Part shown: piece after piece, positions 37,813-45,978 of the stretch
How the letters are laid out: every line of letters begins with the position of its first letter
Numbering within the stretch: position 1 is the first letter of the stretch
NCBI RefSeq assembly: GCF_902170565.1
Contig: NZ_CABHXX010000132.1
Coordinates: 1 to 64,000, forward strand
Direction: 5' to 3'
DNA: 64,000 nucleotides
Source of the DNA: Yersinia thracica
GTDB lineage: Bacteria > Pseudomonadota > Gammaproteobacteria > Enterobacterales > Enterobacteriaceae
Position numbers and translations under genes: made by a program
Notes under the pieces: generated by a model
Database searches by the model: none
Told to the model about the DNA's origin: nothing
Seen by the model: the letters and a program-made list of their open reading frames with translations, nothing else

Positions 37813-39264
37813 TTAGCTTAAATCAATATTTTTATGACCGAAAAACCATGTCAGAATAAAGCCAGCAATATATGAGATCAGTAGACCGGCCACATAAACC
37901 AGCATCCCGGCAAAAATCCCTTGGGCTGAAGTCATCAGCGGAATAGAGACTAATCCTGATGGGCCAAATACAGTATTCAAGCCAACCGGCAGCCCCAACC
38001 AGGCAACCAAACCAATAAAGAAACCGCCGACCGCGCCGCCGACACAAGCAGTAATAAAAGGCTTCAGGCGCGGTAATGTCACACCATAAATAAGCGGCTC
38101 ACCAATTCCCAATAACCCCGGGAAAATGGCCCCTTTAATTTGTGTACGCAGCACCGAACCTTTTGGCGAGCGGGCATAAAGTGCCAGCGCCGCGCCCACT
38201 TGGCCCGCACCGGCCATGGCCAGAATCGGGAATAATGAGTTAAATCCTTGCGCATCCATTAAGGCGAAATAAACCGGAACAAACCCTTGGTGGATACCAA
38301 ACACCACTGCAATCAGGAATAACCCTGCCAGAATTGCGGTGCCGAACGGGTTACCATTCAAATGCATAAATAACCAGGACATGCCCTTAAACAGCTCGCC
38401 ACCCAGCGGCATAATGACCACAAAAGTGATGGCACCGGTAATCAGCAAGGTTATTGATGATGTCAGGATCATATCCAGATTATCAGGGATGAAGCGGCGC
38501 ACTTGCCGCTCAATCCATGCACCCAACATACAGGCCAGCAGGACACCGATGATATTGCCGCGAGGGTCAATCGCCAGACCAAAGAAGTTGTCCATGCCGC
38601 CGTAGTAGCCGACAGTGCCCTCCGGCACATAGCGCAAAATAAAGAGTGAAGCGATAATTGCGCCGTTGACCCCAGTCCCGCCAAAGGCTTTCTGTGTATT
38701 AAAGCCAATCAGAATGCTCAGGAAAGTAAACAAACCGATGCTGAATACTTTCATGTAGGCAATCAGTGCTGCCAACCACGGAGATTGAATCACGCCATCC
38801 AATGCCAGTGTTTGCTGGAGCAAGGTCGCTATTCCCAGCAATAATCCCGCTGCAATAAACCCCGGAATGAGTGGGGTAAAGATGGTGGCGAATTTGGTCA
38901 GAAAATTATGAACCGCGCTTTGTTGTTTCGCTTTCATTTGTTGCTTTTTCTGGCCGGCGAGCACCTGCAAATCAACATCATTATTATTTTCAGTAGGTTG
39001 CTGCGGTTCAGAACTCAGTATCTTGTTCATCATTTCGCTGGCTGTTTGGGCTTTGCCCGGCCCAAGAATGATCTGTAATTGGTCATCGCCATTCACCACC
39101 CCCATGACGCCGGGGATTTTTTTTAAGCTTTCATGTTGTATCAGTTGACGGTCTTTTAAAGTGAGACGGAGCCTCGTCATACAGTTTCCGCAGACGATGA
39201 TATTCTGACGCCCACCAATGAAGAGTAAAATTTGATCTATCGTGGTGCCCGTTATTTTCGCCAT
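37813..39264 (-). CDS. murP: N-acetylmuramic acid PTS permease MurP (EIIBC)
   Basis: A 483-residue PTS permease that imports and 6-phosphorylates MurNAc. The EIIB domain (residues 1-85) has the phosphorylated cysteine in CGNCMTRLRLTLKD (Cys28), a linker rich in Gln/Lys follows, and the EIIC domain spans about 120-480 (LLGIGEPLIYGVTLPRLKPF, the sugar motif). No EIIA is attached, so Crr must phosphorylate it, as in E. coli MurP. It starts 2 bp after the murQ stop, on the same strand, so murQ-murP is one operon. Confidence 0.95.
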   Translation of the reverse strand: MAKITGTTIDQILLFIGGRQNIIVCGNCMTRLRLTLKDRQLIQHESLKKIPGVMGVVNGDDQLQIILGPGKAQTASEMMNKILSSEPQQPTENNNDVDLQVLAGQKKQQMKAKQQSAVHNFLTKFATIFTPLIPGFIAAGLLLGIATLLQQTLALDGVIQSPWLAALIAYMKVFSIGLFTFLSILIGFNTQKAFGGTGVNGAIIASLFILRYVPEGTVGYYGGMDNFFGLAIDPRGNIIGVLLACMLGAWIERQVRRFIPDNLDMILTSSITLLITGAITFVVIMPLGGELFKGMSWLFMHLNGNPFGTAILAGLFLIAVVFGIHQGFVPVYFALMDAQGFNSLFPILAMAGAGQVGAALALYARSPKGSVLRTQIKGAIFPGLLGIGEPLIYGVTLPRLKPFITACVGGAVGGFFIGLVAWLGLPVGLNTVFGPSGLVSIPLMTSAQGIFAGMLVYVAGLLISYIAGFILTWFFGHKNIDLS

Positions 39265-39266
39265 GG

Positions 39267-40175
39267 TTATGCTTTAATCTCCTGTAGCGCTTTGCGAATA
39301 AATCCCTTATTTTTGTTGAGGATACCGGCTGCTTCCTCCGCAGACATACCACTCAGGATCATCATAATGGCTGTTTTACAATGGCGGTTACATTCATTGA
39401 GCGCCTCTTGTGCATCCTCGGGGGAGCATTCCGTCGCCTGAACAACAATATCGACCTGGCGCTGCACCAGTTTGGCATTTGTCGCCTCAACATCCACCAT
39501 CAGGTTGCTATAAACTTTCCCACTACGGATCATCGCGCCGGTCGTCAGCATATTCAGAATTAACTTTTGTGCAGTTCCGGCTTTCATTCGTGATGACCCG
39601 GTGACAACTTCCGGGCCAACCAAAGGCTCAATGGCGATATCTGCTGCGTTCCCCATTTCGCTGTTTTGATTACAGGAAATGGCCACTACACTAGCCCCTA
39701 CACGCCGCGCATAGGCCATGGCCCCCAGCACATAAGGTGTGCGGCCACTGGCTGCAATTCCCACTAACACATCGCGGGCATTAAAATTGAGATTACGCAA
39801 GTCTTGCTCACCCATTTCACGGCTATCTTCTGCATTTTCAACCGCTTGTAGAATGGCCGTGTTTCCGCCAGCAATCAGGCCAACCACCATTTCTCGTGGT
39901 GTCCCGTAAGTTGGCGGGCACTCACTAGCATCCAAAATCCCCAATCGCCCAGAAGTCCCCGCCCCACAATAAATCAATCTGCCGCCATGCACGAAAGCCT
40001 CTGCGATAAGAGAGACCGCTTGGGCGATTTCGGGCAGTTTTTCCTCCACGGCGAAGGGCACTTTTTTATCCTCATGATTGATAACCTTGAGTATCTCCAG
40101 TGTTGATAGCGTATCAATTTGAGAACTGGCGGGGTTTCGGCTTTCCGTAACCATTGAGCTTAGATTAATCTTCAT
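39267..40175 (-). CDS. murQ: N-acetylmuramic acid 6-phosphate etherase MurQ
   Basis: A 302-residue SIS-domain etherase that cleaves MurNAc-6-phosphate to GlcNAc-6-phosphate and D-lactate. The substrate loop and catalytic glutamate are in CGAGTSGRLGILDASECPPT (Glu85, matching E. coli Glu83), and a second sugar-binding set is VTGSSRMKAGTAQKLILNML. AAAAGGAAG precedes the ATG. First gene of murQ-murP, divergent from murR. Confidence 0.97.
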   Translation of the reverse strand: MKINLSSMVTESRNPASSQIDTLSTLEILKVINHEDKKVPFAVEEKLPEIAQAVSLIAEAFVHGGRLIYCGAGTSGRLGILDASECPPTYGTPREMVVGLIAGGNTAILQAVENAEDSREMGEQDLRNLNFNARDVLVGIAASGRTPYVLGAMAYARRVGASVVAISCNQNSEMGNAADIAIEPLVGPEVVTGSSRMKAGTAQKLILNMLTTGAMIRSGKVYSNLMVDVEATNAKLVQRQVDIVVQATECSPEDAQEALNECNRHCKTAIMMILSGMSAEEAAGILNKNKGFIRKALQEIKA

Positions 40176-44595: not shown

Positions 44596-44646
44596 TATTG
44601 ATAATATATATCAGAACATTAATTTATTCATTGTGAGAGACAAAGG

Positions 44647-45978
44647 ATGAGGTATTTCCTGAAAATATTACTATGTCTATGTTCATTATTTATTATCAGC
44701 ACTGGCTATGCTAGCGCTACCCAAGAAATTATTTTAGGTGTTGATCGGGAAAATATTTATGGGCCACTGTTAAAAAATAAACGAGTGGGTTTAATGGTCA
44801 ATCAAAGCTCGATTAACAAGGAAGGGCGTCATACCATCGACAAATTGTTATCTGAGCAAGATAAATTCCATTTTACCGTAAAAAAGTTATTCTCCGTTGA
44901 GCACGGTATTCGTGGGAATGCAGATGCCGGATTAGGGGATGATAATCACATTGATAAACAGAGCGGCCTTCCCATTATTTCTCTATATGGGAGGGATAAA
45001 GACGGGCGCGTGCGAGCACATCCTACTGAAGCGCAATTATCTGATGTTGATATCGTTATTTATGATTTACAGGATGTAGGTATCCGCTATTTTACCTATA
45101 CCATTTCTATGCATCATATGTTGGAAAGTCTGCAAAAGTATCATAAACAATTTATGGTATTTGACCGGCCGAACCCGCTCGGAAATCATGTCTATGGGCC
45201 TATTCTTGAAGAAGAGAATATTTCTGGTATTGGCATGCATCCTATCCCGATGGTGCACGGGCTGACGTCTGGGGAGTTTGCCAGCATGATAATCAATGAG
45301 GGCTGGTTAACGCATTTCAATGATTCTAGTTGGCAGGCATTTGGTATTAAAGCTTATCAGTTTCCACCTGAGAATTTGACTGTTATCACCATGGGAAATT
45401 ATACACATGATTCACCATATTCATTGCCAGTAAGGCCCTCACCAAATTTACGCAGTGATCTGGCGATTCAGCTTTATCCCTCTTTGGGATTATTTGAAGC
45501 AACCAGTGTCAATATGGGACGCGGTTCCGCCCATCCCTTTGAGCAATTAGGTTTCCCATCCCGGCGGTTTTATATTAACACCTGTTATCACGTCGATATT
45601 AACCAGCAGAAAACCGGGTGGCCGCAAGCGGGTAAAGAAGTGTGCGGCGAAAAATTTGCTGCCGCCAATATAGCCGACTTTAAGCCGACAATACGTTACT
45701 TTGTTGAATGGTGGTTCAAATTTAAAGAAGCGGGTTATTCGATGGTTATTTCTCCACAGATGGAGGCTAATTACCTGGATTATCAGGATGATTATTTTTT
45801 AATTCGCCCTCTTTGGCTAGCAAAATTAACGGGCACACGTCATCTGGTTAAGTTAATGGAAGAAGCCGGTGAGAAGAAATTGACTGTCGATGAGACTGTG
45901 AATTATCTGGAATCTCACTGGCAGCCCGACCTAGATAATTATCTGAAGTTACGCGAGAAATATAAAATATATCCTTAA
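44647..45978 (+). CDS. namZ: exo-beta-N-acetylmuramidase NamZ (DUF1343)
   Basis: A 443-residue DUF1343 (GH171) protein with a signal peptide (ILLCLCSLFIISTGYASA). Family motifs are LMVNQSSINKEGRHTID, FSVEHGIRGNADAG with the proposed catalytic glutamate, LQDVGIRYFTYTISMHHMLE, FDRPNPLGNHVYGP and SVNMGRGSAHPFEQLG. B. subtilis NamZ (YbbC) removes MurNAc from non-reducing ends of peptidoglycan fragments and is encoded with nagZ and murQRP. Here it is the last gene of nagZ-porin-namZ, with a terminator at 46004. The MurNAc it frees would be the MurP substrate. Confidence 0.9.
   Translation: MRYFLKILLCLCSLFIISTGYASATQEIILGVDRENIYGPLLKNKRVGLMVNQSSINKEGRHTIDKLLSEQDKFHFTVKKLFSVEHGIRGNADAGLGDDNHIDKQSGLPIISLYGRDKDGRVRAHPTEAQLSDVDIVIYDLQDVGIRYFTYTISMHHMLESLQKYHKQFMVFDRPNPLGNHVYGPILEEENISGIGMHPIPMVHGLTSGEFASMIINEGWLTHFNDSSWQAFGIKAYQFPPENLTVITMGNYTHDSPYSLPVRPSPNLRSDLAIQLYPSLGLFEATSVNMGRGSAHPFEQLGFPSRRFYINTCYHVDINQQKTGWPQAGKEVCGEKFAAANIADFKPTIRYFVEWWFKFKEAGYSMVISPQMEANYLDYQDDYFLIRPLWLAKLTGTRHLVKLMEEAGEKKLTVDETVNYLESHWQPDLDNYLKLREKYKIYP

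What the first reader, a model, noticed from the sequence alone, without database searches (positions are those of the whole stretch)
37813..45978. Gram-negative peptidoglycan amino-sugar recovery locus with secreted NagZ, porin and NamZ
Six genes combine the cytosolic MurNAc route (murP, murQ, murR) with three secreted proteins: a two-domain GH3 N-acetylglucosaminidase with signal peptide, an OmpG-like porin and a DUF1343/NamZ exo-N-acetylmuramidase with signal peptide. B. subtilis has a related set (murQ-murR-murP-amiE-nagZ-namZ) for using wall glycans from outside. Enterobacterial NagZ is normally cytosolic and recycles own anhydro-muropeptides, so a periplasmic NagZ/NamZ pair with its own porin points to harvest of foreign or shed peptidoglycan. 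I infer: porin admits small glycans, NagZ and NamZ trim them alternately, MurP takes up MurNAc. No amidase is encoded here, so stem peptides must be removed by another enzyme.
Basis: partly seen in the sequence, partly recalled or inferred. Interest (0 to 1): 0.78.

Follow-up and report, generated by a model that had tools for sequence, protein, structure and literature searches.

The report
Periplasmic cell-wall sugar foraging locus
A Yersinia-type bacterium carries a six-gene set that appears to let cell-wall sugars in through a dedicated outer-membrane pore, clip them into single sugars in the periplasm and burn them; it is a Gram-negative counterpart of a set known from Bacillus, and the paper searches made here listed no description of it.

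Summary
GH3, porin and NamZ have Sec-type signal peptides. The association is not chance. In 25 Yersinia species genomes, NamZ, this GH3 type and this murQ occur in the same 15; murP in those 15 plus one decayed remnant. In 392 family genomes the porin occurs in 10, always directly between GH3 and namZ. The set recurs, rearranged, in two other families, and the trio alone sits on two Providencia plasmids. Both promoter regions share a CRP-type site and a GGAATA half-site in every locus compared (19 of 19; 23 of 23). The 15 genomes also keep an ordinary short NagZ, and 13 keep a second murQ. Best explanation: a MurR/CRP-controlled MurNAc-catabolic regulon that takes peptide-free wall saccharides through the porin, trims them with NagZ and NamZ, and imports MurNAc by MurP. 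Foreign versus own wall is undecided; no activity was measured. It is a new variant of the B. subtilis murQRP-amiE-nagZ-namZ cluster, with a porin and no amidase.

The parts
37813..39264 (-). murP, PTS EIIBC for N-acetylmuramic acid
   Evidence: NF007152 844.6 bits over cut-off 516; 62% identical to E. coli MurP; in 16 of 25 Yersinia genomes, the 15 with namZ plus G400
39267..40175 (-). murQ, MurNAc-6-phosphate etherase (locus copy; a second, 59% identical copy lies elsewhere in the genome)
   Evidence: TIGR00274 440.9 bits; 61% to E. coli MurQ; genus survey
40176..40399 (.). murQ-murR divergent promoter region with CRP-like site CGTGATGATTATCACG and two GGAATA half-sites
   Evidence: conserved in 19 of 19 loci compared; in the window alone P 0.043 and 0.026 against shuffles
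40400..41263 (+). murR-like RpiR/SIS regulator
   Evidence: PF01418 E 1e-23, PF01380 E 3e-19; 40% to E. coli MurR over 202 residues; below the NCBIfam MurR cut-off
41264..41619 (.). promoter region of the three-gene cassette with CRP-like site TGTGATAATTGTCACT and TATTCC half-sites
   Evidence: conserved in 23 of 23 loci compared; in the window alone P 0.003 and 0.0475 against shuffles
41620..43491 (+). secreted two-domain GH3 beta-N-acetylglucosaminidase (B. subtilis NagZ/YbbD type); first-stage start 41608
   Evidence: 3bmx E 5e-115 full length; KHFPGHGNVTSDTH and TDAMDM motifs, signal peptide, Shine-Dalgarno before 41620
43510..44595 (+). OmpG-like outer-membrane porin with a short charged N-terminal segment and C-terminal Phe
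   Evidence: profile match to OmpG-type proteins 95.7%, E 9e-9; two of those three match PF09381 (the third was not scanned) and their profile finds E. coli OmpG 2x9k E 8.5e-13
44647..45978 (+). NamZ, secreted exo-beta-N-acetylmuramidase (DUF1343)
   Evidence: PF07075 E 2e-63, PF20732 E 1e-12; 4jja E 9e-61; E85 and Y151 invariant in 10 of 10 aligned

Best explanation
A MurR- and CRP-controlled regulon for using the sugar backbone of peptidoglycan as a nutrient. Short, peptide-free saccharides from wall material enter the periplasm through the OmpG-like porin (inferred). There the secreted GH3 enzyme removes non-reducing GlcNAc and NamZ removes non-reducing MurNAc, in turn, down to monosaccharides (inferred from family activities). 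MurNAc enters as MurNAc-6-phosphate through MurP, and MurQ converts it to GlcNAc-6-phosphate and D-lactate (family knowledge). MurNAc-6-phosphate is expected to release the MurR-like repressor from half-sites shared by both promoters, and CRP to switch the set on when better sugars are lacking (inferred from conserved sites and from E. coli and V. cholerae murQP).
For: Gene families and signal peptides. The same 15 of 25 Yersinia genomes hold namZ, this GH3 type (76% or more) and this murQ (83% or more); murP in those 15 plus G400, where murQ is in pieces. Porin in 10 of 392 family genomes, always between GH3 and namZ; murPQR adjoins in 6 of those 10. In Y. rohdei the trio and murR-murQP lie apart and both are kept. 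All six genes recur, rearranged, in families f27 (2 loci, murP cut by the end of the stretch) and f12 (1 locus). namZ has a murQ within its 3.6 kb locus in 22 of 30 order-level loci. CRP-type site 8-10 of 10 in 19 of 19 murQ-murR regions and 9 of 10 in 23 of 23 GH3 upstream regions; GGAATA, GAATAA and AATAAT, overlapping pieces of GGAATAAT, are the only hexamer classes present in all 19 and all 23. V. cholerae murQP needs CRP (passages of PMC10328515); E. coli MurR represses in the absence of MurNAc-6P (passage of PMC5061867).
Against: No activity, localisation, expression or growth was measured. The porin has no direct sequence match to a solved structure and no model could be computed. The regulator misses NCBIfam's MurR cut-off. 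In 4 of 10 family genomes with the cassette, on both Providencia plasmids and on two Providencia chromosomes, murPQR does not adjoin it; only in one of these (G506) did a murQP turn up elsewhere, and I did not search the others for it. Two-domain GH3 genes also occur without namZ in 6 of 17 family genomes, in three of them (L094, L095, L097) with none of the other five genes in 16 kb; Yersinia G395 has a 39% GH3 relative without NamZ; G659 has NamZ without this porin. The locus has no amidase. Single-sequence shuffles give only modest support for the promoter sites in the window itself (P 0.003 to 0.05).
Confidence: 0.74

Rival explanations
1. The set recycles the cell's own wall: septal amidases leave denuded glycan strands in the periplasm and NagZ plus NamZ trim them for MurP; the porin is incidental or lets turnover products back in.
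For: The genome has two Amidase_3 proteins that could make denuded glycan; the B. subtilis AmiE and NagZ serve turnover products (passages of PMC5061867).
Against: The genome already keeps standard recycling genes: a short NagZ, an Amidase_2 protein that looks AmpD-like, AnmK and a second murQ. NamZ is absent from 10 of 25 Yersinia genomes and from 381 of 392 family genomes, and the porin goes with the enzymes in all 10 porin genomes.
Confidence: 0.2
2. The trio acts on chitin-type or other GlcNAc oligosaccharides and is beside murPQR by accident.
For: GH3 enzymes are broad, and OmpG-type porins are unspecific (recalled). Two-domain GH3 genes occur without namZ in 6 of 17 family genomes.
Against: NamZ accompanies the porin in 10 of 10 genomes; co-occurrence with this murQ is complete within Yersinia and with murP nearly so, 15 of 16; promoter elements are shared; murQ adjoins namZ in 22 of 30 order-level loci.
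Confidence: 0.05
3. The trio modulates wall fragments that act as signals (beta-lactamase induction, host sensing) rather than feeding.
For: Wall fragments are known signals (recalled); NagZ has been studied in AmpC regulation of Y. enterocolitica (title and start of abstract of PMC5623720).
Against: CRP-type sites and shared half-sites in both promoters fit catabolism; a short NagZ is present in 25 of 25 Yersinia genomes.
Confidence: 0.04

Closest known systems
B. subtilis murQ-murR-murP-amiE-nagZ-ybbC(namZ) cluster
   Different: Here there is no amiE; an OmpG-like porin sits between GH3 and namZ; the GH3 protein has a plain Sec signal peptide where YbbD is named a lipoprotein; CRP-type sites rather than cre sites; murQP and murR are divergent, with the trio apparently a further unit (inferred).
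E. coli murR / murQ-murP-yfeW divergon
   Same: Divergent murR and murQP, with 61-62% identical MurQ and MurP; E. coli is also controlled by MurR and CAP (reference title seen in PMC5061867).
   Different: E. coli K-12 has yfeW after murP and no GH3, porin or namZ gene in the stretch shown; the 8.2 kb locus matched 6 of 5426 E. coli genomes by megablast, over 11% at best, in murP.
Tannerella forsythia MurNAc scavenging (murTKQ, NamZ1/NamZ2, AmpG)
   Same: Gram-negative use of outside MurNAc; exo-N-acetylmuramidases named in a reference title (passages and references of PMC10465942 and PMC7670621).
   Different: T. forsythia is a MurNAc auxotroph and uses MurT/MurK instead of a PTS; no porin-enzyme cassette was seen in those passages.
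E. coli OmpG (PF09381)
   Same: Distant counterparts of the window porin match PF09381 (L074, at the same operon position, and L096) and OmpG structures; the profiles of the two groups align.
   Different: The window type does not itself match PF09381 or any PDB chain usefully and has a charged N-terminal segment.

Membership tests
NamZ family (PF07075/PF20732) | both domains over the curated cut-offs | tested here: met
   213.8 and 49.6 bits, cut-offs 26.9 and 25
NamZ family (PF07075/PF20732) | catalytic residues (a Glu and a Tyr, recalled from the B. subtilis enzyme) | tested here: inconclusive
   E85 and Y151 invariant in 10 of 10 aligned NamZ sequences; their catalytic role is recalled, not tested
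NamZ family (PF07075/PF20732) | release of non-reducing MurNAc from MurNAc-GlcNAc | not testable with these tools
   needs an enzyme assay
two-domain secreted NagZ (YbbD type) | full-length match including C-terminal domain, and NagZ active-site motif | tested here: met
   3bmx aligned 7-620 of 622; KHFPGHGNVTSDTH and TDAMDM present (motif roles recalled)
cytosolic one-domain NagZ (NF003740) | score over the equivalog cut-off | tested here: not met
   177.4 bits, cut-off 207
MurP | NF007152 over cut-off | tested here: met
   844.6 of 516 bits
MurQ | TIGR00274 over cut-off | tested here: met
   440.9 of 302 bits
MurR (NF012026 equivalog) | score over the equivalog cut-off | tested here: not met
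   245.3 bits, cut-off 408; best NF008590 254.5 of 355. It looks like a MurR by position and domains only
OmpG family (PF09381) | direct match of the window protein to the family model | tested here: not met
   no PF09381 match at E up to 1
OmpG family (PF09381) | profile-level relation to OmpG-type proteins | tested here: met
   hhalign 95.7%, E 9e-9, 243 columns
OmpG family (PF09381) | 14-stranded monomeric barrel (recalled) | not tested
   structure prediction answered 'busy' in all 14 attempts
B. subtilis-type MurNAc recovery cluster | murQ, murR, murP, secreted nagZ and namZ together | tested here: met
   (murR by position and domains)
B. subtilis-type MurNAc recovery cluster | amidase gene amiE in the cluster | tested here: not met
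   none of the six products matches an amidase family

The most novel reading that the evidence does not exclude
A mobile, self-contained peptidoglycan-glycan utilisation cassette (secreted NagZ, dedicated porin, NamZ), under joint MurR/CRP control with its own murQP, by which enterobacteria feed on the walls of other bacteria; the porin is a specific pore for muramic-acid saccharides.
Probability: 0.4. Interest if true: 0.72.

Novelty: new variant of a known kind. Interest (0 to 1): 0.56.

Why it matters
Enterobacteria are textbook examples of internal wall recycling through AmpG and cytosolic NagZ. A conserved outer-membrane-to-cytoplasm route for wall sugars, kept beside standard recycling genes and found on plasmids, would mean that some of them treat wall glycan as food. 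It would give a branch of the OmpG porins a concrete substrate, assign a second, dedicated murQ, and provide a simple test organism (Kosakonia) for wall scavenging in mixed communities.

Tried and rejected
Structure prediction of the porin (alignment A1) was asked for (14 calls); every call answered that the machine was busy, so no model and no fold search exist.

Direct sequence searches of the porin against PDB gave nothing useful (single tropomyosin, ribosomal-protein and dynein-chain matches at E 0.33 to 5.8); the OmpG relation came only through distant counterparts.

The idea that the site next to tRNA-Met marks the whole locus as a mobile island was not tested. A tree of 19 NamZ rows had 6 of 15 inner branches starred and 6 open, too weak to date transfers.

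E. coli genomes: only murP matched, in 6 of 5426 genomes, at megablast sensitivity. PHROGs gave no match at E 0.01 for the porin or NamZ. Sigma-70 and terminator scans of 37700-46400 found 32 and 7 sites against 24.4 (sd 5.0) and 8.1 (sd 2.9) in shuffles and were not used.

Papers: the NamZ papers of 2021 and 2022 and the E. coli MurR/CAP paper are not held. Ten text searches listed, by title and start of abstract in capped lists, no paper that describes a secreted NagZ-porin-NamZ set; most subscription papers are outside that library.

Rows dropped and limits: the porin of L008 (Y. massiliensis CCUG 53443) was left out of alignments because its reading frame breaks near the start. Of the 25 porin references, A1 used 22 (without L008, L044, L045) and A4 used 11. 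The promoter comparison used 19 and 23 regions: L002 (contig end) was left out of both, L071 out of the murQ-murR set, and L088-L093 were fetched afterwards; several of these loci are close relatives. The CRP scoring reported the + strand only. In the family surveys not every first-look candidate was scored (for GH3 at most 3 per genome), so counts of extra GH3 copies are lower bounds.
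Full report
WHAT IS THERE. The window lies in a 4.31 Mb genome of 140 contigs. By its relatives it is a Yersinia: of 12 named loci with a NamZ relative, 8 are Yersinia species (79-88% identical), 1 Serratia (79%), 1 Kosakonia (72%) and 2 Providencia (66-67%). I did not identify the species. Six genes fill 37813-45978. 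murP and murQ run leftward with a gap of 2 bases; murR runs rightward after 224 bases; a GH3 gene, a porin gene and namZ follow rightward, with gaps of 18 and 51 bases between these last three. MurP and MurQ pass their NCBIfam equivalog cut-offs. The regulator does not pass the MurR cut-off and is called MurR-like from its domains, its position and 40% identity to 202 residues of E. coli MurR. The GH3 protein is below the cut-off of the NagZ model NF003740, but aligns over residues 7-620 of 622 with B. subtilis YbbD/NagZ, including the KHFPGHGNVTSDTH and TDAMDM motifs (their catalytic roles are recalled). NamZ aligns with two solved proteins (4jja, 4k05).

SECRETION. A simple hydropathy and cleavage-site scan gives an N-terminal hydrophobic core followed by small-residue cleavage sites in the GH3 protein (TYA|AV), the porin (ALA|DE) and NamZ (GYA|SA or ASA|TQ), with no lipobox. 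This is not a trained predictor. Relatives differ: a GH3 protein in L096 has a lipobox, and the NamZ of L098 starts like a lipoprotein by eye, though the script's lipobox pattern did not fire on it.

THE PORIN. The window protein has no Pfam hit over cut-off and no useful PDB match. In family f12 (L074) the gene at the same place, between GH3 and namZ, matches PF09381 OmpG (E 2e-17), and so does a porin next to another GH3 gene in L096 (E 8e-20). A profile of three such proteins finds E. coli OmpG (2x9k, E 8.5e-13), and aligns with a profile of 11 window-type porins with probability 95.7% and E 9e-9 over 243 columns. No structure could be computed.

NOT A CHANCE NEIGHBOURHOOD. Genus: of 25 Yersinia species genomes, 15 have NamZ, the same 15 have the GH3 protein at 76% or more, and the same 15 have this murQ at 83% or more. 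murP is in 16 at E 1e-100: those 15 and G400, where murQ survives only as pieces. One genome without NamZ, G395, has a more distant GH3 relative (39%). All 25 also have a short NagZ-like GH3 at 33-35% identity, and 23 of 25 have a second murQ at 57-59% (absent in G405 and G406), which in G404 lies beside another murR-like gene. The locus murQ is therefore an extra copy in 13 of 15. These species are related, so the counts are not independent events.

Family: of 392 genomes drawn from the window's family (f1), 11 have NamZ at E 1e-30, 17 a GH3 protein at E 1e-100 and 10 the porin at E 1e-10. All 10 porin genomes have GH3-porin-namZ side by side in that order. One genome, G659, has NamZ without this porin and with its GH3 genes on other contigs, and 6 have the GH3 protein without NamZ. 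Of those 6, I looked at four: in L094, L095 and L097 none of the other five genes lies within the 16 kb fetched; in L096 an OmpG-type porin and a murR-like gene follow. murPQR adjoins the trio in 6 of the 10 porin genomes (G000, G258, G378, G198, G473, G720) and not within the stretch fetched in 4 (G506, G673, G731, G526).

Beyond the family: all six genes stand together in two genomes of family f27 (L070, L071; trio turned round and convergent with murR; murP is cut by the end of the stretch) and in one of family f12 (L074; murR diverging from murQ-murP-GH3-porin-namZ). At order level 36 of 394 genomes have NamZ, 35 over the cut-off; in the 30 loci held, each about 3.6 kb, murQ lies beside namZ in 22, a murR-like gene in 12, GH3 in 3, this porin in 1 and murP in 0. 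So outside a few families the common neighbour of namZ is murQ, not the porin.

THE CASSETTE MOVES AS A UNIT. In Y. rohdei the trio (L007) has no murPQR within 21 kb, while murR-murQP stays next to glsA and gadC on another contig (L084; the two are taken as one genome, G412, because its contig coordinates agree with L007). Both parts are kept. In Providencia the trio stands without murPQR beside it, on two chromosomes (L012, L013) and on two plasmids (L044, L045; annotation tables). A different arrangement, a lipoprotein-type GH3 gene plus an OmpG-type porin gene, a murR-like gene and murQP without namZ, is present in L101 of genome G506, which also has the trio elsewhere.

SHARED CONTROL. A CRP core (TGTGA-N6-TCACA) is matched at 8-10 of 10 positions in 19 of 19 murQ-murR regions and at 9 of 10 in 23 of 23 regions upstream of GH3, Providencia plasmids included. 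In the window alone the best match has P 0.043 and 0.003 against dinucleotide shuffles, and the half-site counts P 0.026 and 0.0475. Testing all hexamers (2080 classes when each is merged with its reverse complement), GGAATA, GAATAA and AATAAT, overlapping pieces of one motif GGAATAAT, were the only ones present in 19 of 19 and 23 of 23. Spacing is kept between distant loci: -198/-178/-112 in L063 and -197/-177/-112 in L044, but f27 keeps only one exact site (-105) and L012 only one (-192). The exact hexamer is not in the E. coli murR-murQ region nor in the second Yersinia murQ-murR region. The loci compared are related, but upstream DNA of Yersinia, Providencia and f27 is otherwise poorly alignable. 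I read this as a MurR-type operator half-site plus CRP; binding is not shown. V. [quoted passage not shown] coli control by MurR and CAP is named in a reference title in PMC5061867.

PEPTIDES. In B. subtilis AmiE and NagZ act in sequence on released muropeptides (passages of PMC5061867); that NamZ needs peptide-free glycan is recalled. No amidase lies in the locus. The genome has two Amidase_2 proteins, by eye one AmpD-like and one AmiD-like without an evident signal peptide; next to the latter lies a protein of PF07313, amidase-like, with a lipoprotein-like start; there are two Amidase_3 proteins and AnmK. GlcNAc uptake was not tested.

MECHANISM. Shown: gene content, order, co-occurrence, promoter motifs. 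Inferred: entry through the porin, alternate trimming by NagZ and NamZ, MurP uptake, MurQ conversion, MurR/CRP control. The main rival is recycling of the cell's own denuded glycan; the patchy distribution, the porin and the retained standard recycling genes speak against it but do not exclude it.

NOVELTY. The plan is that of the B. subtilis cluster, adapted to a Gram-negative envelope. Ten text searches (listed in Tried and rejected) listed no description of this locus, but the three most relevant papers are not held, and I recall that the 2021 NamZ paper already noted NamZ in some gammaproteobacteria. I therefore call it a new variant of a known kind.

Noticed in passing
window 46337-47029 (+) and 47483-47559 (-): A 230-aa ORF matching phage family phrog_26461 (unknown function, E 4e-35) lies between namZ and a tRNA-Met beside rpoD. 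In L003 and L010 rpoD comes about 430 bases after namZ without a match to this ORF, so it looks like an insertion near a tRNA.
   Followed up: partly
L101:6965-13656 and L096:7090-11072: A second kind of module: lipoprotein-type GH3, OmpG-type porin and murR-like gene, in L101 followed by murQ and murP (murP 83% identical to the window's), without namZ.
   Followed up: partly
L044 and L045 (Providencia rettgeri and P. hangzhouensis plasmids): The GH3-porin-namZ cassette sits on plasmids, within the same 25 kb as traI and fimbrial genes.
   Followed up: partly
L083:669-1556 and L087:6748-8670: A second murQ (57-59% identical) is present in 23 of 25 Yersinia genomes; in L087 it diverges from another murR-like gene, in L083 it is followed by ORFs that look like yfhB, tadA and mltF (by eye).
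   Followed up: no
L085:7393-9316: In Yersinia genome G400 murP has an unbroken frame, murQ is in pieces, and no NamZ or close GH3 relative was found: a decaying remnant.
   Followed up: no
L102:699-2351: In the window's genome an AmiD-like Amidase_2 gene without an evident signal peptide follows a gene of PF07313 (amidase-like) with a lipoprotein-like start: a possible source of peptide-free glycan.
   Followed up: partly
   Followed up: no
L080:2191-7698: Two GH3 genes flank namZ in a family f12 genome, without a porin between them.
   Followed up: no
window 33686-37751: Next to murP lie a glutaminase and a glutamine/GABA antiporter gene and a 466-aa ORF probably encoding glutamate decarboxylase (by eye from the matching ORF in L084): an acid-resistance set.
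   Followed up: no
L008 near 8867: The porin gene of Y. massiliensis CCUG 53443 has a frame break near its start; the near relative L068 has an unbroken frame.
   Followed up: no
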